Shown in pieces: positions 20,926 to 63,141 of a stretch of 64,000 nt of DNA (positions are counted from its first letter, which is position 1; every line of letters starts with the position of its first letter). A program made the translations under genes and the position numbers. Below the pieces are notes generated by a model, which was not told the origin of the DNA, did no database searches, and was given only the letters and a program-made list of their open reading frames with translations. Source of the DNA: Dioscorea cayenensis subsp. rotundata (Eukaryota; Streptophyta; Magnoliopsida; Dioscoreales; Dioscoreaceae); NCBI RefSeq assembly GCF_009730915.1, contig NC_052475.1, forward strand, positions 124,001 to 188,000. Direction: 5' to 3'.

Positions 20926-20931
20926 TTTATA

Positions 20932-21566: not shown

Positions 21567-21572
21567 TTTATA

Positions 21573-36779: not shown

Positions 36780-37546
36780 CTAGTCTCGGCGAGTGTAGTT
36801 GCCGGCGACTCGGCCATCGTTGTCACGACCACCATAATTATCCGTGCCCACTCTGGCGCCTCCACGGCCACCTTGGACGTTGTTGTTATAGACATCCATG
36901 TAATTGTTTCTTCCGGCACCGTTCCTCATGCCTATATCCACATCTCCAACCGCATCATCAACGTTGTTGCAGAACACTCGAGCACGGTTATCTTGACCAG
37001 CATAGTTGCCACCACCTACACGGACTTGGTTACCGTAGTCTCCACCCCTCACGTTGTTCCTGAACACCTCCGCATAGTTATCACGTCCACCGTAGTTCCC
37101 ACCGGCGATCTCAACGTCCGCATTGGCACCGTAGATTCCGTTCTCGAAGACACGACCGCGGTTGTCACGTCCGGCGCCATTGTTAACGGCGATGTGGGCC
37201 CTCCCACGACCGCCGATAACATCGTTGTTCACCACGTCCATTGCGAAGTCTTGGCCTGCATAGTTGCCTACTCCAATGCGAGTGTCCCCAACGTTAGGAC
37301 AGCTAGGGACACAACAAGGACGGGCTGGCCGACAGGTTGGCATGCATCGGGTTACCACGTAGGGGCAGCCAACCACGCAGCATGGACGGGGAGGACAGCA
37401 ACCTGGCATGCACCTATTCTGTAATAATGCCATCATATAGATATATATATATGTATGATCAGTTGTAAGCATTATCATAAAAGCAATCAAAATTTCAGTC
37501 ACTATTTTATTTTTTCCTTTTCCTAAGTATGCAACATAAGTATGTT

Positions 37547-37598
<52 letters not shown>

Positions 37599-37615
37599 CA
37601 TATGTGGCTCACCAT
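36780..37615 (-). CDS. Gene A: Cys-motif plus six-repeat protein of the local family
   Basis: Two coding exons on the minus strand. Exon 1 contributes only ATG (37613-37615) followed directly by donor GTGAGC; exon 2 is 36780-37418 after a CAG acceptor at 37419-37421. Product about 213 aa. Two consecutive copies of the motif C-x3-C-x4-P-C-x4-C-P lie at the N-terminus (around CMPGCCPPRPCC and CMPTCRPARPCC). Six degenerate repeats of 25-30 residues follow, first TRIGVGNYAGQDF-x-MDVVNNDVIGG and last ARVGTDNYGGRDN. Gly, Asn and Asp dominate. No hydrophobic leader is seen in the spliced form. An alternative start inside the intron (MMALLQ) cannot be excluded. Function unknown; the repeat period and inside-pointing hydrophobics suggest a beta-solenoid. 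The intron carries (TG)n(AG)n at about 37545-37595. Confidence 0.75.
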
Positions 37616-37729
37616 TTTGTTGATGTGTTCGGAGAAAGAAGGGATGGAGATAAAATGTATAAGAGGGACTCTTGGAGAAGGTTTGTTGTGAGACTTGAGG
37701 GTGGTTGTGACAGGGAATAGAATGGTGGG

Positions 37730-37737
37730 CTTTTATA
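37730..37737 (-). promoter_or_regulatory. TATA box of gene A
   Basis: TATAAAAG on the minus strand, about 115 bases upstream of the ATG at 37615. This leaves a plausible leader of about 85 bases. Confidence 0.55.
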
Positions 37738-38452
37738 AACAAAGGCATTGAAATGGTCAATGGCTGGTCGTATTAAAAAAATATTATAAATGTGGGTCAC
37801 CATTCATAGGGTCTTTTTATATAGAGGAGAAAAGAAAGAAGAATAAGGTGGTCATTCTTTATGTTTTCGGTTCAGGTCAGCAGCAACCTTCAGGGAAAAC
37901 CCACACATTTGTTTTCATATTTGTACATTAAAAGAATATTAAACGATCTAGGCGTCCCTTATGTTTCTCCCAAATGTTTTTTTACAAGAAGCAATGGGTA
38001 GTTCGAGGCGCCTTAAATTATCAGGAACGTACAAAAAACTCGGTAGAGTAAGTGGAGGTGGGCCCATACACATGGGCATTGAGATCATCGCACACAATTA
38101 CCGTTCACATTTCTCAAAAATATATCATCAGTTGAAAATCAAATTCTCATCACTAGATGAAGAGTTCTATTGTTGACTCGTATATTAATAGATTATTTGG
38201 TCATAATGTTAAGTGGATAAGTTCTAGTACACATTGTACCGGGTTTGCGGTTGGTTTTTAGCAACAAACTTGCCCGAGAAGTTATGCTAATCAAAAGGGG
38301 CTTCTTTCTTAATGACCAAGGTCTTACTTTACTGGGTCTAGTGAACAGGAATTAATACTTTACTAAATCATCAGCACCACCACCTCCACATCCACCTCAT
38401 CCTCTGTATTTGCTGAGAAGATCAGAGGCAACCCCAGTCCAGTTGGTAATTA

Positions 38453-39685
38453 ATGGTAAGTTTTCTTCTGTTTTTTTTGGTTGCACATGCAATAAGTTGC
38501 AATCAAATAAGAGGAGGCTTCCATCATGTCTGATTTTGCTATTTTTATGGCATGGCTAATGGCTTGTTATATGGTTGCACGCATCCAGGGAGCCTGCGAT
38601 CCATCCTGCAGTGAGAGGCATCCTTGTGGAGTACTGGGTTGTCCCAGCTCTCCCTTCATAGATCCACCAGCCGTAATTGAACCCGAAACCGGATCTTTGC
38701 TACCAAGTGGAACTACTGGCGCACTGGAGGAGACATCTCCACTAATAACGGCGGCTAATGAGTCTCATGTAACCAATCTACAGATTCTCTCCAGCTGTTT
38801 TCTCTCTCTCTCTCTCTAATTTCATACAAGCTTTCTTTCTTTCTTTCTTTCTATATATCAAACTCTCTAAACTCTGTCTTTTAATTATAGCCGCTTGAAC
38901 AGCCACCAAGCGCTCCAGTGCTTCCGGACAAGGCCATCTCACCGACACCACCTATGATGGCAGTTCCCATGCCTTATCAGGAGCAAGCCATTCCACCACG
39001 CCAATTCGTAGGGGAGAGTTCAGTCCCAGTCCCAGCACCAGCACCAGCACCAGCACCAGCACCACCTCAAGGTGTGGATAATCATGACGTACCAATCCAG
39101 AGGATGGAATCGATGGATTATCCCCCTCCAGGTCACCGTCCATTTGGTGGAGAAGACCTGGGTCGGCGTGGCACGAGGCGGCCATTCCCTGGTCCTCACA
39201 CTCACAGCCGGTGGTATGACTATATCCCCTTGATATCCGACTTAGGTCGTTATAGATGCCGCCAGTACTACCCAAACGATCATTACTTGAATAACAGGCC
39301 TTGCTATCGGAGGGTGGAAAATTTCTGGTATAACCGTGACTCTGACAACTGTGTACCTCCCCGTTCACGGAGGGTTCGAGATCGTGTACCCAATTACTGT
39401 CCCAATATGGATGACTACAACTACGTGCCTGTGCCTCCTCCCCCTTTGAGGAGATGGAATACTTTCCCTATTAGAGAGCCTCCATCATCCTCCTCTGCAC
39501 ACCAGAATCATGAAGATCCGCAGGCAGGACCCAGTGATGGCCGTCAGCCTGCAGCTGGTGATCAAGGCACCCTTGTTCGGGATAACATTGTCATTGGTGA
39601 TCCGACCAGGGTGAGGATTGGAGAAGGAAATCGTGGTGGCCGTTCTACTGGTGGTCGTGTCACTGGTAATGTAGTCATTCGCTAG
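38453..39685 (+). CDS. Gene B: Cys-motif, Pro/Arg/Tyr-rich member of the local family
   Basis: Exons 38453-38455 (ATG only, donor GTAAGT), 38589-38768 and 38891-39685 join in phase 0 to about 325 aa. Exon 2 opens GACDPSCSERHPCGVLGCP, a perfect match to C-x3-C-x4-P-C-x4-C-P. The middle is Pro-rich with a (PA)n run (VPVPAPAPAPAPAPPQG) and then an Arg/Tyr/Asn-rich stretch. The last 35 residues revert to the family repeat (TRVRIGEGNRGGRSTGGRVTGN). An alternative start at 38527 inside intron 1 would keep frame and give a hydrophobic, signal-peptide-like leader (FAIFMAWLMACYMVA). I prefer the ATG exon because all relatives share it. No recognised domain. It looks like a family member in which most repeats were replaced by disordered sequence. 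Confidence 0.7.
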
Positions 39686-41139
39686 ACCAGACCAGACCTG
39701 ACCAGACCACGTACACCAAAACCAAACCAAAATTATGCAACAAGATATTTAATTTGTTATGGTAATATGTTTTAGTCTTGTCTTTTTAATGCTTCTGATC
39801 ATGGATGTATGCATACTTTTCGTTAAGTTCGCTTGTAAGTAGATGTAGTAGTAAGTTTGTAATAAAGAGGAGTAGTTTTTCAATAGAACAGATCCTTGTT
39901 CAAGTTTATCTGGGCATGCATGCACTAGTGTATCCATTTTGTTAGCTAAAGCATAGGCCAACCAAAGGTTAATTTAAAGTGGCCCACTTTCCACCTACAA
40001 GGCTGCAACGCACAATTTGCAGCCACAGGATCTGGCCGACGTGTGGACAATTTGGTGGTTGATATATATATTTTATCTCCATGTTTTGTTCTTATATTAC
40101 CATTTGAAGAATCCAGGCTATATTCGGACTGGCTCGGATTGTGACTATAACTTCCACTGTGAAAAGTCATGAAACACTTAACTTTTTTATCAGAACGTAT
40201 TTATGCCCAATAAATAAATATTTTTTTTAATTTCTATGATGATATTGTTACATAATTAAAGAACATCATCAGAAATAGGGTTATGATCCTCCAAGATTTA
40301 TTGAAGAAGTAACCAGGTCGATCAAAAGAATTCGGACAAATAATAAAGGACATGGTATATATATGGCTTTGCATATTCCTGTGTTAATTTAAAGTTTTCT
40401 TCATTTGATACTGATGTAGTGATATTCCTACTCAAAATGAAGATTTTAGCTAAGATGCGAATGTCGTCATCACCCAACTAAAACAGAGTCACTAAAACGA
40501 CGTGGTTGAAAAACCAATAGCTGTTGAGAGGGGATCTGTCAAACAAACCTATCTAATTAAGTTTAGGTGATTATTTTATCACTTAAAGACAAGACAATAG
40601 TGTGATTTATTCTCACCATTTGGTCATAATGTATTTACAATATTATGTCTTAGTCAAACCTTTCACACTAGCCAAAATTTCAGATCAACAAAATATGAAG
40701 TAGACCAAAAGTAAACTGAGCTTAAATTCCTGATATACTAATGTCTTAAAAAGTCAGAACAGCATGGTCATTGTTTATCAGAAATGCAGGGCAGCAGTTA
40801 TCACAACGGAAGACAGCAGGATGGTGATCGCGGCGGTGGCCTGTCCTTGTTGCTTCCTTCAACATGATGTATTATGGAATATACAAAGACTTCACCAGGT
40901 CCACTCTCATTAAATTTTCAACTAGTCTTTGTTTATTGGAGATTGAGTACATACCACAAAGACTTGGATGAAGGCGTCTGAATGATTGCAACGAATTAAT
41001 AGCTTTACCAGTAATATTTACTCTTAATTAATATTATGATACTTGTAGTTCCTTAGTAACTATATATCCCATCCAACGCTCACAACTTGTGTCCCATCTT
41101 ATTATTGTTGGTGCCAATTAAGGTATACGTCACTGAAGC
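39686..41139. other. Intergenic region between genes B and C
   Basis: Contains the 3' flank of gene B and, from about 40560, sequence resembling the upstream flank of gene D (43790 onward), marking the left part of the C/D duplication. No further gene is supportable. A 27-codon frame at 40784-40867 was not retained. Confidence 0.45.
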
Positions 41140-41649
41140 ATGGCACAGAGGGAGGAACGAGCTCGCCAACCACCTCGCCAAATGGATTCTGATCCAAGGC
41201 CTTATGCCCGGGCGAATGTTGGTCGTAGTGCTGCTTCCGGTGTTGGTGCTCGCCATTCGGCCCCTCCCAGATCACATGCACCTGAAAGTTATGATGAGTA
41301 TGCTCGGTATCCACGGGGTGGCGAAGGCCGCCGGAATGACTTTGTTCGTGAAGGGCCAAGCAATGGAGGAGGCCAAGGTCAACGTCAAGGTGAAGGTGAA
41401 GGTGAAGGTGAAGGTGGGGGGCGAGGTGCTCCTCCTCGCTGGCCTCGCTGGACGCCTGCCAACCAAACCAATGATGATGACGACGACTGCTCATCCTCAT
41501 CGTCTGATGACGAGCCTGAATTCAGAGACATGCATATCGTCATTGACCGCAACAGGATTAGGAATGCTAAAGGCGCCAAGATTGTCACAGGCCAACGTGT
41601 CAAGAGGGATCTCAGTGTTACTATAACCAACAATGTGATTGGAGGCTAA
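41140..41649 (+). CDS. Gene C: intronless protein with acidic linker and single family repeat turn
   Basis: A single exon of 169 aa starts MAQREERARQPPRQMD. The first half is Arg/Pro/Gly-rich and shares HAPESY and GRRN blocks with gene D. A GEGEGEGEGG run and a DDDDDCSSSSSDDEPEFRDM acidic/Ser stretch (casein-kinase-2-like sites) follow. The C-terminus IVIDRNRIRNAKGAKIVTG...VTITNNVIGG resembles one turn of the repeat of genes A, F and G (compare VVNNDVIGG in A). No Cys motif and no ATG-only exon. It is a close paralogue of gene D 3.2 kb downstream, in the same orientation. Function unknown. Conservation of the frame between C and D supports it being coding. Confidence 0.75.
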   Translation: MAQREERARQPPRQMDSDPRPYARANVGRSAASGVGARHSAPPRSHAPESYDEYARYPRGGEGRRNDFVREGPSNGGGQGQRQGEGEGEGEGGGRGAPPRWPRWTPANQTNDDDDDCSSSSSDDEPEFRDMHIVIDRNRIRNAKGAKIVTGQRVKRDLSVTITNNVIGG

Positions 41650-44401
41650 GAAAAATACATATATGTATATATATATGTATACTTGGTCCTCTCCTTTCTG
41701 TGGTATTTATTTCATGTTGTTATGTTACAATTCTGCTGCTCTTGTTATTATCAGATGAATAATATTCCGCTCCTTCAGGGGCAAATAAAAAACTGTTTGA
41801 GATGGGATTGCATGAGTAAATTAAACATTGGAAAACCATCACATATATATCTAGCTAGGAGTAATTATTATTATTATTATTATTTATACATACATACCAT
41901 TGAAATAGATGTATAATTTAGCATTTTAAGGAACAATTTTAATTTTTTTAATAATGTTTAAGTTTTTATTTATATTACTTATAATATTAATAATTGAAAA
42001 ACATTAATTACATTTAATTATTTATGTAATAAATGTTCATAAGACTTTTGAAATCTAAGGTATATATAAAGTTTATATGGTAGAAGTTGTTTAATTATAT
42101 TATTTTATATATGATATTGTCTCAAAACTCTTCGCAAAATTTTAAAATCTCCGATGCAAAGCCGGGGAAAATGTCTAGTTATTATTAAAATAGACAAATC
42201 AGTCACTCAAACTTTTTGTGAGAGGGACACGATTGAGAGAAAGTTGATTATTTAACCTCTCATTCAAGAAGGCAAAAAATTATGATCTTTACAACTAGCC
42301 GAGAGATCGAATTGGTTTTAATTATGGTGTGAATACTCTTTGTTATTTTACTCTCGATTTATTTTTTAATGATGGATGAGATAGGAATTACATTGTGGAA
42401 GGGTATTTCTCACAAAAAAAATATATACTCACAATCACAAACAAATAGACTTATTCTATGAAAAAAAGTTTATTATAAATTAAAAAAATAGTATAATTTT
42501 ATAAAAGTTCATTCTCCTTATAAAGTTCATTCTCCTCCATGATCAAACATTGAGGGTTGATCCTAGTGGTTAGTGGCACAGCTAATCCAAGGATTTTATA
42601 GCTTGTTTAAAAAGAAAATCAAATAATTGTGGTTTGTATGTTTTTTTTAAAAAATTTAATAAATAGGTAGTTATCATTTCAAAAGTTTTTTTCAACTCAG
42701 GAAACTCTACCAAACATTTTAACTTTTCAGTATTACTTTTATTTTTTTGACAAAACGGACAATTATATTACTTCCCTCAGAATTGACACTTCTTCTATTT
42801 CACAATTTCAAATCAAATTTTCAAAAACTGAGAGCCCCTAATATATGTAGCCCACAAAGAGATCCATTTTGTTATTATTTGAACGAAATAATTTTGAATT
42901 TTTATCTTAAGTTGCCCCTTGAAGAGATCCATATTTTTAATCTGATAGAGAAATACAAATATTTGACTTTATAAAGACGTCATCACTGAAATTTTTATTC
43001 ATCTTAGTTTTATAAAGCAGTCATTCACACACACACACACACACAAAAACATGCTATTTTTCAAAAATTATTATGACAATTATTGTTACACGCTATTTTT
43101 CAAAAATTATTATGACAATTATTGTTATTCATCACTCTATAATACACATTATCTTTTCATGATTTATCTCATTTTATTTTTTTAAAAATGTTAAAATTTT
43201 AATAAATAATCGGGCAAACATTTTGTGAATAAATTGGATAATCAGTACTGTTGACATTTAATAGGAATTGAAGTGATTAATTTCACAAAAAACTAAATGT
43301 ATGATTAAGAACGGCTTTGCCCTTTTCTGTTTGAAATCAATTTTACTACAACAATATAACGGTAAGAAAAAAGCCATAGTTAATAACTTTATTTATCATA
43401 AATTACATATTAATAAAAGGACAAATATTTAGTGAAAAATAAACTTTTTAAATAATGATGAGTATTTAACATACCATGATAAGTCTAAACACCACACAGT
43501 TCTCCAATATATCACATTTATAGTTTACATAACATATGATGCTTTATATAGAATTGTAAAACACATAAGTTAAGTGTCATTAAAATTTAATTTGATTGAT
43601 CTTACTTAAATTTAGAGTTAATTATTATTATGATTAAACTATAATTATATTTAAAGTTAAATTAAGTTGTAAATAACTGAATAATTATAAATTTATGTTT
43701 CCTGTATAGTACAACAAGGCAAAAAATGTAACCAAACTACAGCTTAGCTGATTATTTTATTAATCACCATTTATCAGCATGCTGTCAAAGTGAGAAAGAA
43801 TAGAGGTTGTCACCGAAAGGCAATTTGATAGTATGATTTATTCTCACCATGATATGACGGCCTCTTTCTTTTGTTGCTTTTTTTAAAGTCATTTCAGAAT
43901 TATGCCACGGGCAAAGCCTCAACTCTAAAATAAATAAATAAATAAATAAACAAAAGAAAAGTAATGCTAAATTCCTATATACTAAAAAAAAAAAAAAGAC
44001 TTGAACGGCAATCAAGGTGGTCTTTGTTTATTCGAAAATGGGGGCATCCAATTCAAAGGCAAAACAATACCATATCTGTCACTTCAAACTTCCCAAATTG
44101 CACAATTTTATACATATTAACTAATAGCGAGTCGCATATAGGATAAGGGTATATATCCCATCCCACACGACAAGGATTATAATGGAATATAAAACGACTA
44201 GACCCAGTCTACTCTCTTTCAATATCAAGGTAATCTTTGTTTATTGGAGGAGGACATATAGAAAGAAAAAAATGGGTGGAGGAGTTTGATCAAATACAAC
44301 CAACACTTTTGAGTTTGATGCAACAATTACACTCATATTAGGATATATCTATCTACTCGCTACTCGCTGCTCGCTGCTCGCTGCTCGCTGCTAATTGAAG
44401 C
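41650..44401. other. Intergenic AT-rich region between genes C and D
   Basis: No supportable gene. It includes a (TTA)n tract near 41865-41885, a 39-bp direct repeat pair at about 43053-43128, (CA)n near 43025-43045, and from about 43790 the upstream flank of gene D, which resembles the flank of gene C. A TCGCTGC-type array (44352-44391) directly precedes the gene D start. Confidence 0.45.
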
Positions 44402-44890
44402 ATGGCACGGAGGCTAGGCCGAGCTTACCAACCTCCTCCTCCAATGGATTTTGATTTTGATTTTGATTATTCCGATCCAAGGCTGCCTTTTGCCAGGCCG
44501 GGTGTTCGTCGTGCTGGTGCTGGTGCTGGTGTTCGCCACCCGCCTCCCAGACACGCACCTGAGAGTTATGAATTCGCTGGGTATCCACCTGGTGGCAATG
44601 GCCGCCGGAATGAGTACTTCGTCCATGAAGGTCCAAGCACTTGTGATCAAGGGCGTGGAAGGGCTGCTCCTCCTCGTCGGCCTCGGTGTAAGCCTGCCTA
44701 CCAAGTTGATAACGATGACGACTCCTCGTCCTCATCCTCATCGTCAGACGACGAGCCTGAATTCAGAGACATGGATATCGTGATCGACGGAAACAGGATC
44801 ATGAATGCCAAAGGTGCTAAGATCGTCACAGGGGTTCGTGTCAAGAGAGACCTCAGGGTTCGTATAAGCAACAATAAGATCGGAAGTTAA
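44402..44890 (+). CDS. Gene D: tandem paralogue of gene C
   Basis: A single exon of 162 aa starts MARRLGRAYQPPPPMDF. Like gene C it has an Arg/Pro/Gly-rich first half (HAPESYEFAGYPPGGNGRRN), a DDDSSSSSSSSDDEPEFRDM acidic/Ser stretch, and a C-terminal repeat turn (IVIDGNRIMNAKGAKIVTG...VRISNNKIGS). The segment from EPEFRDM to the end is the best conserved between the two, so that region is probably under constraint. A (DF)n run near the N-terminus comes from a GATTTT microsatellite. No Cys motif or signal peptide. Flanking non-coding DNA is also similar, so the pair arose by local duplication of a unit of at least 1.2 kb. Confidence 0.75.
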   Translation: MARRLGRAYQPPPPMDFDFDFDYSDPRLPFARPGVRRAGAGAGVRHPPPRHAPESYEFAGYPPGGNGRRNEYFVHEGPSTCDQGRGRAAPPRRPRCKPAYQVDNDDDSSSSSSSSDDEPEFRDMDIVIDGNRIMNAKGAKIVTGVRVKRDLRVRISNNKIGS

Positions 44891-45198
44891 AAAAGAATCA
44901 GTATCTCTGCTTAATTAATTGGTCGACCTTCTCTGCTTGCTACTATCATCTTCTGTAACTGTTTTGCTTTGTATTATGGTTATGGTTCTATATATGTCTC
45001 TGTGTGTTGTTATATATTATCAAATGAATAATAATAATTATTAATATATGTTCAAACCTTCAGTACTACTGTCATATAAAAACTCATGGATGACTAGATA
45101 ACATGATCGATCGAGTAGATTATTAATCATGGAAGACTTAAGCGATACATAAACAAATTAAAAGGGATGGAAATTTTACAGAAAGTTGTACGTGTTAA

Positions 45199-45887
45199 TT
45201 AATGTCTACGTCGATCTCCAAAAGGGGAGCTCCACCTTTCCCTGCCTCTGTGAGTGGAACCCCTGCGTATGCCATCTTCATGGTTAGCAGAGGAAGTTGG
45301 TCTTATCCGGTTGCCGGAAATGACAATCCGAGCATCACCACCGGACTGGTTGCCAACCCCAATTCTGACACTCCCCTGTCCTCCCCTGTTCACGTTCATG
45401 TAGCTACTCCCAGAAGCATGAAAAGCATCTTCTTCACCACGGGAAACATTGGTCACTGTAATCCCAGAAACACGAAGAGCCAAATCCTTGTGTGCAGTGT
45501 TGCCAACTCCGAGTAGAACGCTGTCTCGTCCTCGTAAGACCTCATCCACTTGGATGTCCATGTTGATGTCCTCTGCAGAATTGTGGCCTACGCCAATATT
45601 CCTGATGTTGTTATTAGACCATGAATATGGCTCTTCTAATCCGTCAGTACTATTGTTGACGCCCCTTCTCTGTGAGCTCGGACCAGGGGAACCCGGCACG
45701 TTCGTTGACGGCGGTGGTGCGTTGGGACATCCAGCCGAGTAGCATGGCTGCCATGCTCGGCATGTACTCCGACAAGCCTATAAACAATTACAAAAGTAGA
45801 GTTGGTTTGTTATGCGAGTATGTAATAAGTGTCTATGGAACAAGTACGTTTTTGGCCGGTCGAGGGAAAGAGCAGAGGACTAACCAT
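45199..45887 (-). CDS. Gene E: Cys-motif plus three-repeat member of the local family
   Basis: Minus strand. Exon 1 is ATG only (45885-45887, donor GTTAGT); exon 2 is 45199-45777 after acceptor TTATAG. Product about 193 aa. Exon 2 opens ACRSTCRAWQPCYSAGCPN, a perfect C-x3-C-x4-P-C-x4-C-P match. A Pro/Ser linker, three degenerate repeats (NIGVGHNSAEDINMDI, LLGVGNTAHKDLALRV, RIGVGNQSGGDARIVI) and a basic, Arg-rich tail ending GDRRRH follow. In this gene the three bases before exon 2 read TAG in frame, so the Cys motif can only be translated if the intron after the ATG is removed. That is direct support for the ATG-only exon model of the family. Function unknown. Confidence 0.75.
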
Positions 45888-47476: not shown

Positions 47477-47851
47477 GGGTAAATTTTTTCACTAGGTCAT
47501 TAAATTTTGATTCATTTTCACTTTGATCCCCGAACTTTAATTTGTATTAATTTGATCATTAAATTTTAATTTGATTTCATGGGGTAATAAATCAAGGAAT
47601 TTAACTCCCAACTGATTACATGGCTGTTTGAAAATCCGAGTCAGTCCTTGTCATAACACATTATTAAGTCTTTTGGAGATACCCATGTTATTGAAAAAGA
47701 GCCAGATCATTCATTTGGGGGTCAAAATCTCTTGATTTATCACCCAGTGAAATCAAATTAAAATTAAGTGATCAAATTTATGCAAATTGAAGTTCAATGA
47801 TTCAAAGTGAAAATGAGCCAAAATTTAATAACATACTAAAAAATTTACCCC
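47477..47851. mobile_element. MITE with long terminal inverted repeats
   Basis: About 130 bases at each end are inverted copies of each other. The left arm starts GGGTAAATTTTTTCACTAGG; the right arm, read on the minus strand, starts GGGGTAAATTTTTTAGTATG. Internal matching blocks include 'cattttcactttga' and 'ttaattttaatttgatttca' in both arms. Total 375 bp. It could form a long hairpin. The target duplication was not resolved (flanks AATTAATGG and AATTGATGG are similar). Confidence 0.8.
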
Positions 47852-48478
47852 AATTGATGGATATAGGAGAATTGGAGGATTTCCAAGATCCAAGTGATAC
47901 AGAGGATGATTTGACAAATCAATAGGAAAGAGATATCAAACTCAAAGCACTAGTTAGAAGGAGAATCAAACTCGGTTCCGACCTAAAAAGGGCTGCTGCT
48001 TAAAATCTTGATCTTTTACATTTTTTTTTCATTTTACTTATCTCAATGTTTTTATGGATCATCTAAAAATTGTTTGGTGGAATTACTATGAGTTGTTAAT
48101 CCGTTCTATATGGCTCATAAACAAGGGTAAATATGCTTAGGTAATGGTACATCCACCGCTACAAAATTTGGTTTCTAACTTTTTTCCGACCTCCATCAGG
48201 TCTCTTCTAGGAGAAAATTCTTCTCCTAGCTAGGTATTTGTCAAATTTCTATCTACCTTCTATGTCGGTAGCCTATATCCTATCATCAGCAATGGCCCAT
48301 TCACATTTTTCTAGCATGACAAATTAATGACTTCATGATAGAACCTCCGTTTGGTTGTGCCCAACTCTGTGTCTTGTTGAACCACATTCACTGGGCTTAG
48401 AACTTGCCTTCTAATCATCTCTAGCAACCAATTGGATGACACCAAAATTTGGACCCTCAAAGATAATAGGGTGTTTTT
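47852..48478. other. Intergenic sequence with duplicated LINE-like phrase
   Basis: No gene. The phrase around 48400-48470 ('ccttctaatcatctctagcaacc' then 'gacaccaaaatttggaccct') recurs at about 50460-50520, which marks a dispersed or locally duplicated element. Confidence 0.4.
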
Positions 48479-52931: not shown

Positions 52932-52938
52932 TATATAA
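52932..52938 (+). promoter_or_regulatory. TATA box of gene F
   Basis: TATATAA sits in a block (GCCTATATAACCTTTGC) shared with gene G, 81 bases before the ATG at 53019. Confidence 0.55.
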
Positions 52939-53018
52939 CCTTTGCATGTTGTATAGCCTTGCTGCATACCATCCAACAATTAGCTTACACTACACTACCA
53001 ATATCAATTCGATCAACA

Positions 53019-53492
53019 ATGGTAATGATCTTATTATAGTACCTTGGATTCTCTTCTGATAAACTATGCATAATATATATATATATATATCGTACATATA
53101 AGGGCGTTAATTAGTGAGGCATATATATGTATAATTAACCAGCCATTTTGATCACTCACTTGTATCTTATATTGGCAGGGGCAGGCGTGCTCAGCATCAT
53201 GCCGTCCCTACAGGCCATGTGGTCTCCCTGGATGTCCCCACAAAGGGGAGGTCCTAATCAGGTGGACAACAATGCGCAAGGCGAGTTAGGCATGGACGTC
53301 GCTGGCAACCAAGTTGTTGGCGGACGTGGAAAAGTCGAGATTGGTGTGGGGAACAACGCTGGGGGTGACAATCGCGGCAGAATAATAGACAACGATGTCT
53401 ACAACACAGACAGGAGTGTTGACATTGGCGTGGGAAACACAGCTGGAAGGGATAACAAGATGCAAGTTTACGGCAACAAGGTTTGCCGTTAA
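53019..53492 (+). pseudogene. Gene F: frameshifted, shorter sister of gene G
   Basis: It has the family layout: ATG-only exon 53019-53021 with donor GTAATG, then exon 2 from 53179 opening GQACSASCRPYRPCGLPGCP, a perfect Cys-motif match. About 25 codons later (53259-53262) the coding strand has one base fewer than gene G: ATC-AG-GTG where G reads ATC-GGA-GTG. In the original frame translation stops at TAG 53287-53289, after 37 codons. In the shifted frame the body is open to 53492 and encodes three repeats (VDNNAQGELGMDV, VEIGVGNNAGGDNRGRI, VDIGVGNTAGRDNKMQV) ending NKVCR. Gene G has six. Either a recent loss of function or a sequence error. An AATAAA lies at 53671. Confidence 0.75.
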
Positions 53493-54477
53493 CCACTCAG
53501 GAACTAGTACGTCTTCAAACGCAACAATAAATACTAGCAACCTGCTGTTGCCTGTCATAAGTCTAAGTACTAGTTGTGCTCGCTACTTTACTTCTGTTTG
53601 TTCTATAAGAACGGCTGCATTGTATTGTGTATGCCATGCGTGAAAGCTTGTCAGCTTTATTATATGATGAAATAAAATGGCAGCAGCATTATACGTATAA
53701 TAAACGCTTTGTGATGCTCTGTCCCCCACTGGTTGTTGGTCTCTGTTTATATATACGAACATGAGGATGTCAAGGATGTTAAATACTTCATTTCTTTTTT
53801 TTTTTAATTATGTATTAAGGGAGACGGTAAAGAAGTTCATTCCACCACCCGAGCTGCTTATAATGATCGTCTAGCTTCAGAGAGGGCTAGCTAAGTCTTC
53901 CTGCTTTTCTTCCCCTGTTTTCCAACGAACCAGGAGACCTATTTCAAGGCTGTATAATCAGGCCCAGGCCAATTTAAACCATAATAAGACCCATTTCACT
54001 GCAAACCTAGATTTTTATTTCTGTTTTAGATTGGCTGACAACCCCCGGCCCCTTTCCTTCTTATTGATACACAATAGGTTGTGAAGAAAAAAAAGACTGT
54101 TTCGTTCCTTTTTCCTCTCTTTTATGAACAACTCAGCTGTAGTTTTCTTTTCTTCTCAGCTCCATGTTGTTTGTAGGTGTGGCAGTGCATCACTTTTGGT
54201 GATTGTCTCCTAGTCTTGTTTCTTTCTTTTTGTTGTTTTTTTGGTCTTTGTTTGTTATTTTATTTTATATTTGTCTAGTTCGTCTGTTTGTTTTGTTGTC
54301 TTTGTATTTGTTTTATTCTAATTTTTTTTAATAAATCAGTAATTTATTCACTCTACTATATAAAAAACACTTGCAACTTCCAATGATACTATTGAACCAC
54401 TCCTTGTTTTGTTCTTAAATTTCCATTTGAGGAATTGAGGTTAAAGTATTTTTTTACTTTAATAAATATGATTTATC
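53493..54477. other. 3' flank of gene F and intergenic DNA
   Basis: Up to about 54000 this belongs to the left duplication copy. From 54130 to 54350 a T-rich stretch ending near an AATAAAT resembles a LINE 3' UTR, but no coding part is attached. No gene. Confidence 0.4.
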
Positions 54478-55076
54478 TTGTTTTTTGTTTTTCTGAGGCT
54501 ACATTTGGCTTCTGCTATCTGGGGATACTTTGGTAGGATCTTTGGTGATCGGGTTCCCCCGCGGAGTCTTAAGGACCTCTTAGGCAACTGGCAGAGGAAT
54601 GCTTCTAAATCTATGTTTTACTTTTGGGACTTACTTGTTAAGGCTATCTCTTGGTGTATTTGGCTTAAACGAAACGCTCGCATTTTCAATTCTAATTACA
54701 TGTCGAATGGCTCTATTATTAAAAAATTGATCATTTGATAATTTTGTGGATTTCTGCAGCGCTTGAGGCAAAAAGAGCTAAATTGGAGGAACCAGTGTCT
54801 AAAATCAAGAGGAGTCTGGAGTTCCTGTCTTCTACTGATGACAGGCAGGCTATCTAGGAAGCGAGGCCGCCCCCAGGGAGAGTAGTCTTGTTGTTTCCAT
54901 TCAGGTTCCCTAAAGGATTCCCCATTCCTTTAGGACCCTCTTCTTTGTAGTTTTTTCCCTGTTTTTGTTGCTTCCCACTTCTGGTGGTTGACTTTACTTT
55001 GCCAGTTGTAGCCACTTTTCTGGTGGAATTTGTTATCTTTTTATTGCATTGTGGTTTATCCATTAAAAAAAAAAAC
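54478..55076 (+). mobile_element. LINE 3' fragment
   Basis: A frame at 54478-54738 contains SAIWGYFGRIFGD and a WCIWLKRNARIFNSN block, matching in order the IWGHFYRLF and NIWLARNDCIFNA blocks of the LINE at 4940-6108. A T-rich 3' UTR and an A-run at 55064-55074 close the copy. It is 5'-truncated and dead. Confidence 0.75.
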
Positions 55077-55379
55077 ATTTGGTGCGGCACTAACATGATT
55101 GACTATGTCAACGTCCACTGTGGTTTTTTTTAAACGAGAGAGTTGAATCATCAAATTGTATTTATTCCAAATAATTACATAATTTATTTATACCTATAAT
55201 AATAATAATAAATCATTTAGCGTTTGTGGGCTATTCATTAGAAAGAGCACGATATATATTTCTGTTTTAATTTGTAAAATAAAAATAATAAAAACATAAA
55301 TCAAGATGCATATGTCATCATCACCAAGCTAATGAAGGAAGAATTAGTTGACCCGTAACCTTGGCTCGAAAAATTATAT

Positions 55380-55541
55380 TAATCGTTTAGAATAATAAAA
55401 TATCCGCTCTTGATAATCTAGCCAAACGGAGGTTCAATAAGTCAGCCGATGTGTCTTTTACCATGGCACCGTAGATATGGTTGACTCCTCGGCGGAGATC
55501 CAATCATTTTGAAGGCTCCATCTTAAACTTCACTTAAGGGA
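55380..55541 (+). mobile_element. Short LINE ORF2 fragment
   Basis: 'aataataaaatatccgctcttgataatctagccaaacggaggttcaa' type sequence parallels 50620-50670 and encodes a decayed zf-RVT phrase (DNLAKRRF). The copia element is inserted just after it. Confidence 0.5.
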
Positions 55542-55546
55542 TATTT

Positions 55547-55685
55547 TGTTAGAGAATACAGCTGTGTATACAGCTGTATATCTATATTTGTATAGCTACC
55601 ATATTTATAAAACTGTGTATCTATATATACCTTGTACAATTGTAGGCTTTTGTAATGAAGATTGATTAATCTTTTCCACCTAACA
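55547..55685 (+). repeat. 5' LTR of the copia element
   Basis: 139 bp, TGTTAGAG to CCTAACA, highly similar to 60241-60380. It is unusually short for a plant LTR. Confidence 0.93.
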
Positions 55686-55697
55686 TGGTATCAGAGC
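55686..55697 (+). other. Primer-binding site of the copia element
   Basis: TGGTATCAGAGC directly follows the 5' LTR. It is complementary to the 3' end of initiator methionine tRNA, the usual primer of plant copia elements. Confidence 0.9.
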
Positions 55698-55959
55698 GGT
55701 TTTTCTAAACCTAATTTTTTTTTCCACACCACCACCCTCGATCCGCGTGCACCATCCTCGATCCGCGCCTTTCGCCCTCGGCTCGCCGCGCATGCACGCG
55801 CCCGGCGCCGCCGCGTGGCCCGATAGCGCCGCTGCACGCGTCTCCCAGCGCGTTCCGGTCGCGCCGTCATTGCACATCCCGGTAGCGCGCCGCCCGGTGA
55901 TGCATTCGCAGCGCGCCCGCGCCCGCCCGCGCCGATCCTCGAGCGCGTAGTGTGTTTTC

Positions 55960-56692
55960 ATGGCCTCTACCCAAGTTTCTTATCTCCAAAAGGCGGACGT
56001 CATGCTCAATGACAAGAATTATAAAGCATGGTCGTCCACTTTACGTGTGCTCCTTCGCGGACTTAATCTTTGGGGTCATGTTGATGGTACCCGTCCGCCT
56101 CCATGTTCTTCTAGTGCCGTTTCTTCTAGCTCCTCTTCGTCTACAGTTACCAGCGCGTCCTCTTCCACGTATGCTGACTTGCTCAAGTGGACTAAGGATG
56201 ATGCTCGTACCATCGCTATCATCTGTCAGTCCTGTGAGCTTCATATTCGTTTGGCTGTTTGTGATCTTTCTACAGCCAAGGGCGATTTGGGATCATCTGC
56301 GCGCCCTCAATCTTCCTTCCAGTTAGGTGTTACGCTACTCCTTGCTACAGACTCTCACTTTTACCTATCGGCGTGAGACCTCTGTCTCGGATTTCTTTGC
56401 CGTGCTCAGTGATTTATGGCGTCAGTGTGATGAGATGACCCCCTCTCCTTCTCCGACCTGTGCCCAGTGTCTTGCCATTGCTCAATATCGTGATTATCTT
56501 CACATTTATGAGTTTCTCATGCGTCTTCGCCCTGAGTTCGAGGCCGTTCGGGCTCAGCTACTGCACTGGGTTACACCTCCGTCTGCTAGTGATACTCTGG
56601 CATATGTACTTGATGAGGAGATTCTTCTTCGGTCCTTAAATGTGGTTCCACCACCTGATGCTCCTCACTATGTTCTTGCTGCACCCCAGTAG
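55960..56692 (+). pseudogene. copia gag region, frameshifted
   Basis: The first frame (from 55960) starts MASTQVSYLQKADVMLNDKN and contains NYKAWSSTLRVLLRG, typical of the copia gag N-terminus. Near 56280-56330 the homologous reading moves to another frame, which continues with a YRRETSVSDFFAVLSDLW block and stops at 56692. A CCHC zinc knuckle was not recognised. The gag frame is preceded by an unusually GC-rich leader (55740-55950). Confidence 0.8.
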
Positions 56693-56999
56693 AACCTAGT
56701 GCCGACCATTGCTCCTTTGATGCCGTCTCCTGGTCTTAGCGCTCCTGTCGAGTCCTCATCTCGGGTCCTCGGGGGACCCGGTTTCTAGTGCGCCTCCTGG
56801 GCGAGTCGGGTTCGATGTCATTCTTGCCATGCTCCCGCCCCGTATTACGTCTCGAGTGTCGCATGAGCTCAGCGGGCTCGGATGAGCGATGCAGGCGAGG
56901 GCCCCAGCCCCCACCCCTCGACTACTCGGGGTGGTCCATTGTCTCTTGGCGGTTCGACCTTCTTGCGACTTTCGAGTCGGATATCTCCTTTCTTACGCC

Positions 57000-59900
57000 C
57001 CGGTACTCACTCGGGATGCCTCAGAGCGTCTCCACTCACCCATCAGTCGCCTCTGCCCCTACAGGTATTTTTTCATCCTCTTGGTTACTTAACTCTAGAG
57101 CTTCTTTTTATATGACCTATGATGATACCCACCTTCATTCTCTTCACCCTTTTTCTTCTAATCTTCGTGTCATTATCGCTAATGGCACGACACTCCCTGT
57201 CCCTAGTCGTGGCCTCTTACACACCACTCATTTTTATATTCCTGATGTTGCCTTTGTACCATAGCTCTCCATGAACCTTATTTTTACTGGCCAGCTCGCT
57301 TCTCTTGGTTATCTTCTTATTTTTGATGAGTTTAGTTGTCGTGTGCAGGATCGTCTTATAGGGACCCTCATTGGAGCTAGACATCGCCATAGTGGGGTGT
57401 ATGTGCTCGATCATCTTCGTCTTCCGTCCTCTTCTACGTTACTAGCGGCCTCGGTTTATTATTTTTCTACTGTTCGTTTCCATCAGTGGCATCATCGGCT
57501 TGGCCATCCTAGTGGTTCTCGTCTGTCTTCTCTTATTCATCAGGGTATTTTAGGTCGTGTTTCAGTTGATAATTCTCATTCTTGTTCGGGTTGTAAGCTT
57601 GGCAAACAGCTACAACTCCCGTATCCTTCGAGTGTGTCTAGGTCTGGGTCTGCGTTTGAATTAGTTCATTCGGATGTTTGGGGTTCTGCCCCATATGTTT
57701 CCAAAGGTGGACATCGTTATTATGTTATTTTTGTTGATGATTTCTCCCGTTACACTTGGATTTATTTTATGCGTGCTCGTTCCGATTTTTTAAAGGTTTA
57801 TATTGATTTCTCTAATATGGTGCGCACCCAATTTTTTGCCATCATTCGTACTTTCCGTTCCGATTCAGGAGGAGAGTATCTTTCTCATGAGTTTCGTGAG
57901 GTTCTTGCCTCCCACGGCACTCTTCCTCAGCTCTCTTGTCATGGTGCCCATGCTCAGAATGGCACTGCTGAAATGAAACATCGTCATATTCTTGAAACCG
58001 CTCGTACTCTTCTCATTGCCTCCATGTTCCCCCTCACTTTTTGTCTGAGGGTCTGTCTCTCTTCTTGTTTACCTCATCAATCTTCAACCCTCTTTCCTTT
58101 CTTCACGGTTGTAGTCCGAGGGAATGTCTTTTTCCGACCCTACCGGTTATTCTCATCTTCGTGTGTTTTGGTTGTTTTGTGTTATGTCCTCCTTATGCCT
58201 CGAGGCGGATTAAACTTTTACCTTTCGATCTGTTCCTTGTGTCTTCCTTGGTTATAGTCCTGAGTACAAAGGCTATCGGTGTTATGATCCTATCACACGT
58301 CGCCTCCGTATCTCGCGTGATGTCTCCTTTGTTGAGGATCGTCCTTTCTTTGTCCTTTCCCCTTCCTCTTTTTCTCACTCCTCTACTACATTGTCCGATG
58401 TTTAGTTTCTCATTGTGTCCTCACCACCTCCTTTGTCCCCATCTCCACCTGTATCTCATCCATCTGTTTCACCGTTGACTGCTGACCCTCCTGTCCAGTT
58501 TTCTATTCCCACTCCTCTTCTTCCTGAGCAGTCACCCCCGGCGCCAATGGCTTCCTCTGATGTGTTCCCTGCGGATGATCCCCCTGCACGTCGTTATCCT
58601 CTTCGTGATCGTCATCCTCTTGATCGCCTTAATCTTGCCTCTCGAGCTTCTTGACCTACCTATTTCTCCCTCCAATGACCCTCCAGAACCATCTTCTTAC
58701 TGAGAGGCTGTCAAAATACCTGAGTGGCAAGCTGCTATGTCTGTTGAGTTGGAGGCGCTCGAGCACACCTCTACATGAGATTTGGTTCTCCTTCCTCCTG
58801 GTGTTGTTCCCATTACCTGCAAGTGGATCTATAAAGTCAAGACTCGCTCTGAATGTTCTGTAGAGCGGTACAAGGCTTGCCTTGTGGCTCGTGGTTTTCA
58901 GCAGGAGCAGGGATGAGATTATGATGGGACTTTTGCTCCTGTAGCTCATATGACTACCATTCGAGCTCTCATTATTGTCGCTGCCGTTCGACGATGGTCC
59001 CTCTTTCAGCTTAATGTGAAGAATGCTTTTCTTCATGGGGATTTTCAGCCGGAGGTTTACATGCTTCCTCCCCCTGGTTTTTCTTCTCCTTCTGGTTTGG
59101 TCTGTCGCCTTCGGAAGGCTCTATATGGTCTCAAACAGGCTCCTCGGGCCTGATTTGAATGTTTCAGTTCTGCTGTGGTTGCTGTTGGTTTTCAGCCTAG
59201 TCCGCATGATCCCGCTTTGTTTGTGCACTCTTCCTCTCGTGGTCGGACTTTGTTGTTGCTTTATGTGGATGATATGATCATCACTGGTGATGATCCTGCT
59301 CATGTGGATTTTGTCAAGCATCACCTTTAACAACATTTTCAGATGACTGATCTTGGTCGATTGAGCTATTTTTTGGGCATTGAGGTCATTTATACTTCTA
59401 TTGGTTTTCAGTTGTCCCAGCAGCGTTACACATCTGATATCCTCGCACGGTCAGCTCTCTTTGACTCTTGTGCTGTGACCACTCCTATGGAGCTACATCT
59501 TCAGTTGCGTGCTGATGAGGAGACTCCCTTATCTGATCCGACACGCTATCGTCACTTGGTTGGGAGTCTGGTCTATCTTACCATCACTCGTCCAGACATT
59601 GCTTATGTTGTGCATGTTTTGAGTCAGTTTGTTAGTGCACCTACTTCTGTTCACTATGCCCATCTTTTGAGGCTTTTGCGCTAACTTCGGGCGACTCCGT
59701 CTCGAGGCCTTCTCTTCTCTCAGCACAGTTCTCTGGAGCTTCGTTCTTATTCTGATGCTACTTGGGCTAGTGATCCGTTTGATCATCGTTCTGTTACTGG
59801 CTTCTGTTTGTTCTTGGGCTCTTCTCTCATTGCTTGGAAGTCCAAGAAGTAAACTGGCGTTTCTCGGTCTAGCACTGAAGCAGAGCTTCGTGTTATGGCT

Positions 59901-60150
59901 ACTATTGCTGAGGAGATTGTTTGGTTGCGTTGGCTTTTGCATGATCTTGGTGTTGTCTCTCATGCTCCTACTCCTCTACATTGTGACAACACGGTGCCAT
60001 TCGGATCACTTTGAATTACATCCAAACATTCCTTCTCCAAGCATATTGGCGTTGATGCTTTCTTCTTGCGTGATTAGTACATCAAAGGCATTCTGGCTCC
60101 CCAGTTTGTTCCTTCTGAGCGTCAGCTTGAGGATCTGTTTACTAAATCTC
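57000..60150 (+). pseudogene. copia pol region (protease, integrase, RT, RNase H), interrupted
   Basis: Protease: the WLLDSGAS-type motif is present at about 57085-57115 but reads WLLNSRAS, so the catalytic Asp is replaced. The GAG-pre-integrase HHRLGHPS and C-x2-C region lies at 57490-57600. The integrase core (57650-58010) shows HSDVWG, SDSGGEY and an NGTAE...E segment, so the DDE triad appears present. Frameshifts follow near 58030-58260 and a Pro/Ser-rich linker at 58390-58650. Reverse transcriptase covers 58700-59690, with YVDDM at 59262-59276. The RNase H-type end (59690-60120) contains SRSSTEAELRVMA. Stops occur at several points, so no intact polyprotein is encoded. Confidence 0.85.
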
Positions 60151-60213
60151 AGACACGGGCACAACATGATTTTCTCTTGTCCAAACTCTCGATGTTTGAT
60201 CCCCCGTGAGTTT

Positions 60214-60240
60214 GGGGGGTGGGGGTGGGGAGAGGGGCGG
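60214..60240 (+). other. Polypurine tract of the copia element
   Basis: A G-rich purine-dominated run directly abuts the 3' LTR. It is the expected plus-strand priming site. Confidence 0.8.
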
Positions 60241-60380
60241 TGTTAGGGAATCTGTTTGTGTATACAGTTTGTATATCTATATTTGTATAGCCACCATATT
60301 TATATAACTGTGTATTTATATATACCTTGTACAATTGTAGGCTTTTGTAATGAAGATTGATTAATTTTTTCCACCAAACA
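60241..60380 (+). repeat. 3' LTR of the copia element
   Basis: 140 bp, TGTTAGGG to CCAAACA, partner of 55547-55685. Confidence 0.93.
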
Positions 60381-62314
60381 TATTTAAGACATGATTAATC
60401 TCTTTGAGGATGTCAAAAGACTCAGACATGATCTCTCACAAGAGGATCAGTCATTTTAATTTTTATTAAAGATGAAGAATATTAAATAATTAATAATGCA
60501 AGATATTTTATGCTCAAAATGATTCAATTGAGCAGAGGCAGAGATCCTTTTAGTGGTGATAAGATAAGGTTTAATATTCGAACTAACAACATATTAATAT
60601 TTGAAAGATTATATTCATCATAAAAAGTTATATTCATCATAAAAATTATGAGGCTCTTAGGGATCTCTTTATCTTTGTTGTTTTTATTTTATTCTCGATT
60701 GGTGTTTAGTATTTTTTGTTTTTATTATTTTTCCTTCGTGTTTTATCAATTTTTATTTTTAATGAATTGTCTTGTTATATGTTTTTTTAATACACATAAT
60801 TTATTTATTTTTTAATAAATAAATAATAATAAATAAAAAAAAAAAAAAAATTGCCGCCAAACAAGCGGGCTCCTTGAAAACTAAATAATATAAAATGATT
60901 GTTTTTTTCTTCTTTTTGTTTCTGAATGCACATCTAGTTACATTAATGTACTTATATAATCATTAAGTTAAAATTATTACATGCAACTATTAATTTTAAT
61001 TTTCAGCACTCTTCAAGTCTAAGGTACAAATTCTAGGTTTTTTTTAATAACATAATTAATATTTTCACCTAAAGGGGCATCTTTACATTTTTCAAATTGG
61101 GGTATCATCTTATTAATGGAGAGTTGATTTGTCATATTCTAATTCTCCTTTCTACAAAGCTTACCACTGTCAGTGAACTTGGAATAAAGCTTCTGTGTTA
61201 TCTTGGATATGATTCCATATGATTTTTTAATCAACAAGACATGAACTTCTTTGTGAAGGATCTTCTTATATGGTTTGAAGAATTATTTTTTATTGAATTG
61301 CAAGTCTTTAAGTACCTTAAGTGGGACTATATCCTTCGTCTCTTTAAAATCTTTGACTCTACAATCCCTGTAGAACTAATTACACGTAGAAATTACTCCT
61401 TTTTAACTACTATTAAAGTTATCACTGATTATTAGATTTGTCGTACCAAAATCTTTGATTCTACAATCCTTGTAGGACTGATTATACATAGAAATCACTT
61501 TTTTTTAACCACTATCAAGGTTATCACTAATCATTAGACTTACCACCGATTGGTCATTTTTTTTTTATAAAAAAGTGGATAAACCACTGTTTTATTAAAA
61601 AAAACCAGTTCAAACAAGCACAGAATAGACCAACAAAAAAAACATTATTGGCCATTTTTTTAAAGATATATTTGGTTTTTGACAAACAATTTTTACAAAA
61701 GTTAGTTCTCTCCAAGCTTAATAAAATCGTGTAGTTGTTGGAGTTTTAGTGGAGTAAAAAATTATTAGACATATAACACTCATTAAATTTAATGCCAAGA
61801 AAGCTTTGAACAGAAGAGATGTTTTGAATTCAATGGATCAAGTTTTGTTTTCCAAGACCAAATTGTTTGTCAATAAGACAAATTTCGTGCTATATTACTC
61901 ATGGATCGGAGGGGTTTGAGGCAGTGAAACCCTAATTATCGCTATTCATCGTTATGATGTAGTTGTTGTTAGCTGTTTGCTCAACAATAAACTTCTACAC
62001 GATAACATTGAACAAATTAAACTAGAAAGGGTTATCAATATTTATCATGCAAAACAGAGTAGCTAATCAGGGGATGTTAACTAAGCTTGCTCAAGCTCTA
62101 TAGGGAACAAGTAAGGGTTATAATAAACACAAACATTTTTGTGATGCAAATTAATCATGATGCGAGGAGGACATGTCTTCAAGTCGGATAACAAGCGAGT
62201 TGAAAACCCAAACATTTGAATCATAATGCAGTAACAAGAGCATATGTTCCCTCTTATCCTCAGTGGAAAGTGGAAGGAAGTCCGTCTCCAAATTGCCATC
62301 CACTTGCCAACGCC

Positions 62315-62321
62315 TATATAA
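62315..62321 (+). promoter_or_regulatory. TATA box of gene G
   Basis: TATATAA in the block GCCTATATAACCTTTGC, 78 bases before the ATG+1 boundary, conserved with gene F. Confidence 0.55.
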
Positions 62322-62398
62322 CCTTTGCCATGTTCTACAGCCTTGCTGCATACCATACAACAATTAGCTTACATTAGCAATCTCAACCAGTTTCAAAA

Positions 62399-63141
62399 AT
62401 GGTAATGATCTTATTAGTACCTTGCTTGGATTCTCTTCTGATATACTATGCATAATATGCATATATATATATAGATCGTGCAGATATGGATGTTGATTAG
62501 TGAGCCATATATTTATGTATTATTAACCAACCATTTTGATCACTCACTTGTATATATATCTTATATGTTGGCAGAGGTGCGCTGCAGCATGCCGTTCCTA
62601 CCGCCCATGTGGTTACCCTGGATGTCCCCATACAGAGGACGTCCAAATCGGAGTGGACAACAATGCTTACGGTGACTACAACATGGACATCCTTGACAAC
62701 CATGTCCTTGGCGGACGTGGAAAAGTGAGGCTGGGTGTGGGGAACGACGCTTGGGGTGACAATCGCGGCAGCATAAGAGACAACGATGTCTACAACGCAG
62801 ATGGGACTGTTGACATTGGAGTGGCAAACACTGCTGGGCGTAACAGCTACATGGAAATTTATCGGAACAAGGTGGATGGCAGCAGCCCTGGTGCTCATGT
62901 TCGTATGGGAGTTGCTAACGATGCATGCTGTGATAACCGCATGAAAGTCATGCGTAACACTGTGAAGAACGCCACGGATGATGTGGACATTGGCGTGGGA
63001 AACAGAGCTGGAAGGCATAACAATATGCAAGTTTATGACAACGAGGTTCTCGGCGGAACCGGAAGGGTTAAAATTGGAACCGGAAATACGGCCACCACCG
63101 ATAACAACTGCCGGATTCGTGGCAACAAGGTTTATCGTTAA
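62399..63141 (+). CDS. Gene G: Cys-motif plus six-repeat protein, best-preserved family member
   Basis: Exon 1 is ATG only (62399-62401, donor GTAATG). Exon 2 is 62575-63141 after acceptor TTGGCAG. Product 189 aa. The N-terminus reads RCAAACRSYRPCGYPGCPH, a perfect C-x3-C-x4-P-C-x4-C-P match. Six repeats of 24-30 residues fill the rest: VQIGVDNNAYGDYNMDI, VRLGVGNDAWGDNRGSI, VDIGVANTAGRNSYMEI, VRMGVANDACCDNRMKV, VDIGVGNRAGRHNNMQV and VKIGTGNTATTDNNCRI, each followed by a DN-x-V or NxV turn and a Gly/Asp-rich link. There is no in-frame ATG upstream in the intron, so the ATG exon is the natural start. No leader peptide or membrane segment. Function unknown; a beta-solenoid fold is my inference from the periodic V-x-I / N-x-V spacing. 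Confidence 0.8.

What the first reader, a model, noticed from the sequence alone, without database searches (positions are those of the whole stretch)
36780..63141. Cluster of seven related genes for an unrecognised repeat-protein family
Seven members on both strands within 26 kb share parts of one architecture: ATG-only first coding exon, invariant Cys motif, then 28-residue Gly/Asn/Asp repeats. I match them to no family I know. Local duplication, copy-number change in repeats (six in A and G, three in E and F, about one in B, C and D), fusion to Pro-rich sequence (B) and decay (F) all occur in one place. That is the pattern of a young, fast-evolving family.
Basis: partly seen in the sequence, partly recalled or inferred. 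Interest (0 to 1): 0.9.

Follow-up and report, generated by a model that had tools for sequence, protein, structure and literature searches.

The report
Conserved yam-specific repeat-protein gene family
This stretch of yam DNA carries a cluster of genes for small proteins built from a repeated 28-residue unit behind a four-cysteine motif; the family looks real, old and conserved in sequence, but its function is unknown and the searches made here found it only in yams.

Summary
Five of the seven proposed members (A, B, E, F, G) share a phase-0 intron directly after the ATG, a C-x3-C-x5-C-x4-CP motif seen nowhere else in the window, and one to six 28-residue repeats. C and D are a separate pair (60% identical) with neither intron nor motif; their link to the repeat is unproven. 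No Pfam, NCBIfam or PDB sequence match of note was found. Three protein searches gave six relatives: three named Dioscorea, three unnamed, so the window is taken as yam DNA. The window's own genome holds a second cluster on another chromosome-scale contig, with further intact six-repeat genes. Four distinct six-repeat proteins (A, G, K2, K4) keep two Asn per repeat in 24 of 24 units; compared pairs have dS from 0.56 to saturated and dN/dS of about 0.13-0.27. This is an old family under purifying selection. The F/G pair is more recent, and F is frameshifted with fewer repeats. AlphaFold2 models G as a beta-solenoid (pLDDT 78.6, pTM 0.76) but is known to over-predict solenoids. Best reading: an intracellular beta-solenoid rod with a Cys tip, probably a scaffold. 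Function untested.

The parts
37613..37615 (-). Gene A, first coding exon (ATG only)
   Evidence: ATG|GTGAGC; TATAAA 122 nt upstream
36780..37418 (-). Gene A, exon 2: two Cys motifs (37362-37412, 37296-37346), then six repeats (about 36792-37283)
38453..38455 (+). Gene B, first coding exon (ATG only)
   Evidence: ATG|GTAAGT
38589..38768 (+). Gene B, exon 2 with Cys motif (38595-38645)
   Evidence: of two GT sites tried, the one after 38768 keeps the frame into exon 3; motif
38891..39685 (+). Gene B, exon 3: Pro-rich region, then about 1.5 repeats at the C-terminus (39611-39679 by profile)
   Evidence: profile of tandem genes only: 0 of 3000 shuffles
41140..41649 (+). Gene C, intronless; acidic Ser stretch and conserved 43-aa C-terminus; membership unproven
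   Evidence: 60% identical to D; 96% identical unnamed record P0003
44402..44890 (+). Gene D, intronless; as C; membership unproven
   Evidence: 90% identical to D. alata P0005; last 43 residues 37/43 identical in D. zingiberensis P0006
45885..45887 (-). Gene E, first coding exon (ATG only)
   Evidence: ATG|GTTAGT; D. alata P0001 starts at the same junction
45199..45777 (-). Gene E, exon 2: Cys motif (45724-45774), three repeats (45304-45603), basic C-terminal tail
   Evidence: 95% identical to P0001
53019..53021 (+). Gene F, first coding exon (ATG only)
   Evidence: ATG|GTAATG; TATATA 87 nt upstream
53179..53492 (+). Gene F, exon 2: Cys motif (53188-53238), then three repeats in another frame (53262-53483); probable pseudogene
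   Evidence: dN/dS 1.02 against G over the repeats
62399..62401 (+). Gene G, first coding exon (ATG only)
   Evidence: ATG|GTAATG; TATATA 84 nt upstream
62575..63141 (+). Gene G, exon 2: Cys motif (62578-62628), six repeats (62641-63138)
   Evidence: structure model
63597..63599 (+). Gene H (candidate eighth member), possible ATG-only exon
   Evidence: ATG|GTATTC read from the sequence; not tested further; no Cys motif in the C5 stretch scanned
63737..63883 (+). Gene H, possible next exon (Pro/Thr-rich); a B-like C-terminus follows outside the window at C5:191996-192121
   Evidence: C-terminus 52% identical to B over 42 residues; that these pieces form one gene is inference

Best explanation
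A real and old gene family of yams (Dioscorea), not a young burst. Shown by sequence: five genes in the window and further loci on a second chromosome-scale contig (C10: K2, K4 and K5 intact, K1 broken, K3 and K6 partial) carry 28-residue repeats close to V-x-I-G-V-G-N-x-A-G-R-D-N-x-M-x-V-x-x-N-x-V-x-G-(G/A)-R-G-G; the five window genes and K1, K2, K4 and K5 also have the four-Cys motif and an ATG|GT upstream; the intact six-repeat genes are under purifying selection. Inferred: the proteins stay inside the cell (no signal peptide precedes the Cys motif once the intron is spliced); each unit forms about one turn of a beta-solenoid; the two Asn that never vary stack as ladders; the N-terminal Cys motif binds a metal or cross-links subunits. 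Most likely role (inference, low confidence): a short rigid rod that works as a scaffold or associates end to end. The B-type genes put about one and a half units at the end of a long Pro-rich arm, which could act as a docking cap. C and D are a neighbouring conserved pair, not shown to belong.
Against: No transcript, protein or phenotype was available. Foldseek gave no match at E <= 0.001 in the PDB (best 0.014, probability 0.04) or the viral library, so the exact fold is unsure, and the handedness of the model was not checked. AlphaFold2 draws confident, unrealistic beta-solenoids for perfect repeats of random sequence (PMC11795689, abstract read); these repeats are imperfect (mean identity 42% within A and within G) but the bias may still act. 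The Cys part of the model has pLDDT under 50. The protein searches found no A-, B- or G-type protein in any species, so annotation supports only the E-type start. dS above 1.9 is near saturation, and saturated bootstrap rounds were counted as dN/dS 0 (45-237 of 400 for the distant pairs). H's link to the tandem repeats alone is weak (57 of 3000 shuffles).
Confidence: 0.6

Rival explanations
1. The proteins are functional-amyloid-like subunits: the repeat units stack between molecules to build fibres, as in curli (CsgA) or FapC, rather than forming a discrete rod.
Against: All scores are weak, TM-scores are 0.08-0.22, and a profile of the family found no PDB sequence at E <= 10. Curli and Fap are exported by dedicated bacterial systems (recalled); here no export signal is seen.
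Confidence: 0.15
2. The proteins are intracellular binders of a linear polymer (a polysaccharide or nucleic acid) along one face of the rod.
For: VIA matches include pectate lyases and other polysaccharide-acting beta-helices; E is basic (pI 9.5) with an Arg-rich tail, A and G mildly basic (8.5, 8.2).
Against: A shared fold shows no function, and binding or catalytic residues were not looked for.
Confidence: 0.15
3. A young, fast-evolving orphan family.
For: F/G duplication with a decayed F; the C10 cluster lies in a 95-98% identical duplication with one broken copy; no named relative outside Dioscorea.
Against: High or saturated dS with low dN between A, G, K2 and K4; the shared six-unit array predates A/G; E is 95% identical in D. 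alata.
Confidence: 0.07
4. The family is not Dioscorea-specific: it belongs to a wider plant family that word-based searches and annotation gaps missed.
For: The protein search needs shared 5-residue words and one of the three scored only the top 8000 candidates; no other plant genome could be searched; A- and G-type proteins were not found even for D. alata, perhaps because an ATG-only exon is hard to predict.
Against: Pfam and NCBIfam profiles gave nothing above cut-off.
Confidence: 0.35

Closest known systems
Right-handed beta-helix proteins of the pectate-lyase / SufB-SufD type
   Different: No sequence similarity; Foldseek not significant; N-terminal Cys motif
Bacterial functional amyloids FapC and CsgA (curli)
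   Same: Imperfect Gly/Asn/hydrophobic repeats; FapC is the top Foldseek row though weak; similar motif style (PMC12392863 section 6)
   Different: FapC repeats are mostly 38-39 residues, three per protein, with linkers of varied length; here 28 residues, up to six, contiguous; no export signal seen
Genes with start-codon introns (phase 0 between codons 1 and 2)
   Same: Same intron position, short proteins, no signal peptide seen (PMC1626468)
   Different: That class was described as conserved and enriched in ribosomal proteins; these are repeat proteins found only in yams so far
Plant glycine-rich proteins (recalled class; no call)
   Same: Gly-rich composition
   Different: Patterned hydrophobic and Asn columns, N-terminal Cys motif, no signal peptide seen

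Membership tests
The family defined here | Phase-0 intron directly after ATG | tested here: met
   A, B, E, F, G 5 of 5. On C10, K1, K2, K4 and K5 have one or two ATG|GT sites 83-127 nt before the start of the open frame of exon 2 (not tested against chance); K3 and K6 are partial. None seen for C and D
The family defined here | C-x3-C-x5-C-x4-CP motif | tested here: met
   A (2), B, E, F, G; K1, K2, K4, K5. Not in C, D, K3, K6, or the C5 stretch of H scanned
The family defined here | 28-residue repeat with Asn 7 and Asn 20 | tested here: met
   24 of 24 units in A, G, K2, K4. E and F score in the profile, though some of their units lack one Asn; B scores with its own unit left out; the B-like C10 gene 4 of 3000 and H 57 of 3000 shuffles
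The family defined here (for C and D) | Significant match of the C-terminus to the repeat | tested here: inconclusive
   D 0 of 1000 and C 222 of 1000 (whole), D 1 of 2000 and C 73 of 2000 (last 60); 8 of 300; D 512, C 1157, P0006 838 of 3000
Pfam or NCBIfam families | Profile match above the curated cut-off | tested here: not met
   Pfam 0 of 6 above cut-off; D only IMUP at 15.2 bits against 27. NCBIfam 0 of 7. F was not scanned against Pfam
Right-handed beta-helix fold | Confident structural match | tested here: inconclusive
Functional amyloids (FapC, CsgA) | Repeat homology by sequence | tested here: not met
   A profile of G, A, F, E finds no PDB chain at E <= 10
Functional amyloids (FapC, CsgA) | Fibre formation | not testable with these tools
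   needs protein

The most novel reading that the evidence does not exclude
A monocot lineage has evolved its own intracellular Asn-ladder beta-solenoid, capped by a four-Cys motif and encoded behind a start-codon intron, that assembles into rods or fibres in plant cells: a plant-made functional-amyloid-like or scaffold system with no known homologue.
Probability: 0.2. Interest if true: 0.75.

Novelty: new variant of a known kind. Interest (0 to 1): 0.45.

Why it matters
A conserved multi-gene protein family in a crop genus has no domain entry and no solved relative, and is almost unannotated: searches of 5.77 billion sequences returned E-type and C/D-type proteins but no A-, B- or G-type one, perhaps because gene finders miss an exon that is only ATG. 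If the solenoid model holds, it is a natural repeat protein with two perfectly kept Asn columns, useful for studying how beta-solenoids form without an export system and how lineage-restricted proteins arise.

Tried and rejected
Rejected: a signal peptide. B has an internal ATG (38526) before a hydrophobic stretch, and reading B's first intron also gives a hydrophobic start, but the ATG|GT is shared by five genes and the D. alata model of E starts at the spliced junction. Rejected: N-myristoylation as a family feature; of A, B, E, F, G, K2 and K4 only B and the frameshifted F have Gly 2. Rejected: C and D as proven members. Rejected: the sub-cutoff IMUP match of D. Viral contigs: 47 stretches matched a pattern, none encodes a relative. 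No RNA family, no tRNA. Model of D uninformative: pLDDT 49.2, pTM 0.14. Viral fold library: nothing at E <= 0.001. A 14-residue half-repeat: the lag-14 score was above the shuffle mean for G and equalled the highest of 500 shuffles for A, suggestive only. Odd/even repeat types: 34 of 2000 label shuffles reach the difference, weak. Literature searches: listings only, apart from four papers opened; no listed title concerns these genes, and the three annotated gene names occur in 0 papers held. A GWAS of D. alata with browning markers on chromosome 5 was opened (PMC7464735, passages and section 2.5); I could not place the markers and the candidates named there do not include this family.
Full report
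What was checked. A, B, E, F and G each have an ATG directly followed by GT, an intron of 107-194 nt, and a second exon that starts just before a Cys motif. None of the five introns is a multiple of three, and reading through stops after 6-30 residues. B has a further intron; of two GT sites tried, the one after 38768 keeps the frame into the Pro-rich exon. C and D are intronless. The D. alata protein P0001 (182 of 192 residues identical to E) begins MACRSTC, the product of the predicted splice.

More than chance. A loose form of the motif C-x3-C-x5-C-x4-CP matches six places in the window's six frames, all in these five genes, against 0.03 per window in 30 mononucleotide shuffles. A profile of 19 hand-set repeat units finds 6 units in G, 6 in A, 3 in F, 3 in E and 1 in B. 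With a gene's own units left out, 0 of 1000 shuffles reach the score for A, E and G and 1 of 1000 for B; for B's last 60 residues it is 4 of 2000. A and G are 46% identical over 188 residues.

C and D. They are 60% identical with dN/dS 0.32 (bootstrap 0.19-0.49), and the last 43 residues of D are 37/43 identical in D. zingiberensis P0006 and 43/43 in D. alata P0005. They lack the intron and the motif. Tests of their link to the repeat disagree: whole protein D 0 and C 222 of 1000 shuffles, last 60 residues D 1 and C 73 of 2000; 8 of 300 column shuffles; D 512, C 1157 and P0006 838 of 3000 with a C-terminal profile. Status: open.

What the genome shows. The window lies at C5:124001-188000 of a 584-Mb assembly. 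G as query gives 11 matches at E <= 0.001: 4 on C5 (G itself, A, F in two pieces) and 7 on C10; the search scores only the best candidates, and B and E did not reach that limit. I fetched C10:30001-130000 and C5:188001-208000. C10 holds K4 (58% identical to G; six repeats, Cys motif), K2 and K5 (six repeats, identical proteins), K1 (a broken copy of the K4 type), and K3 and K6, which show two units each. K1-K3 and K4-K6 lie in two stretches whose matching pieces are 95-98% identical (35.7-54.9 kb against 95.0-119.3 kb), a recent duplication or an assembly duplicate. B-like C-termini lie on C5 past the window (gene H, 52% identical to B over 42 residues) and on C10 (112.2-112.7 kb, minus strand; 31% over 157). 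Against a profile of the tandem genes alone, B is reached by 0, the C10 gene by 4 and H by 57 of 3000 shuffles. D as query gives three matches: itself, C, and a D-like open frame on C15.

Age and selection (Nei-Gojobori). K2/K4: 75% identical, dS 0.56, dN/dS 0.27 (0.17-0.44). G/K4: dS 1.9, dN 0.33. G/K2: dS 2.7, dN 0.37. A/K4: 61% identical, dS 2.3, dN 0.31. A/G: dS saturated, dN 0.45 (five of the six pairs were compared). Saturated bootstrap rounds were counted as zero, so the lower bounds of the distant pairs mean little. So the six-repeat form is old and constrained. In A, G, K2 and K4 the two Asn columns hold in 24 of 24 units, Gly 4 in 22, Asp 12 in 21 and Ala 9 in 21 (A and G units were in the profile used to align them). 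A and G units match by position: 2 of 720 orderings, including the true one, score as high. The exception is F: the region is a copy of the G region (72-79% identical in the four longest pieces), with a frameshift and fewer repeats, dN/dS 1.02 over 73 codons of repeats (bootstrap 0.48-2.83) and 1.26 over 26 codons before the break.

Relatives. G alone: 30 candidates, none at E <= 0.01. Profile of G, A, F and E: 2 of 2233 candidates, both E-type. Profile of A, D, C and B: 4 of the 8000 candidates scored, at E <= 0.1, all C/D-type. Three of the six are named Dioscorea; three are unnamed (one from ENA, 84% identical to E over 95 residues; two marked lgn, 96% identical to C and to D). In D. alata the E and D genes have consecutive numbers (05G003000, 05G003100), as they are neighbours here. 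No A-, B- or G-type protein was found. I recall, from no call, that D. rotundata assemblies have about this size; the species is not established.

Function. Start-codon introns are a described class, typical of short proteins without signal peptides in plants and other eukaryotes (PMC1626468, abstract and section 7), which supports an intracellular protein. The most likely mechanism is a short rod with an N-terminal Cys tip that serves as scaffold or self-associates; fibre formation like FapC or curli and binding of a linear polymer are the main rivals. None of these steps is shown. On novelty: the family itself matches nothing known, but a lineage-restricted repeat protein with a probable beta-solenoid is a new variant of a known kind, unless the assembly in the novel case is shown.

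Noticed in passing
55547-60381: A copia-type retroelement (gag_pre-integrs and rve domains, RVT_2 below its cut-off) with about 141-bp terminal repeats that are 91% identical lies between F and G; its frames are interrupted.
   Followed up: partly
9035-9532 and 16969-17280: A branching-enzyme exon (E 5e-20 to PDB 1,4-alpha-glucan branching enzymes) lies at 16969-17280; an open frame at 9035-9532, perhaps of the same gene, carries tandem repeats of about 19 residues.
   Followed up: partly
47477-47850: A long inverted repeat (126-nt arms) that folds at -148.8 kcal/mol as RNA, possibly a foldback transposon.
   Followed up: no
20284-21572: Tandem duplication of about 640 bp, 93% identical.
   Followed up: no
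15454-15738: Tandem repeat of about 71 nt, 86-89% identical.
   Followed up: no
5219-5878: An open frame with a zf-RVT domain (E 5e-15), a reverse-transcriptase relic.
   Followed up: no
L023, 1066-1587, minus strand (around G000:C15:8207947-8208297): A D-like open frame with near-identical internal units on a third contig; the match covers D residues 3-132, without the C-terminus.
   Followed up: partly
L009-L018 (G000:C10:35663-54910 and 95002-119260): Two stretches with 95-98% identical pieces that carry the second cluster; a recent duplication or two haplotypes assembled side by side. One copy of the K4-type gene is intact, the other (K1) is broken.
   Followed up: partly
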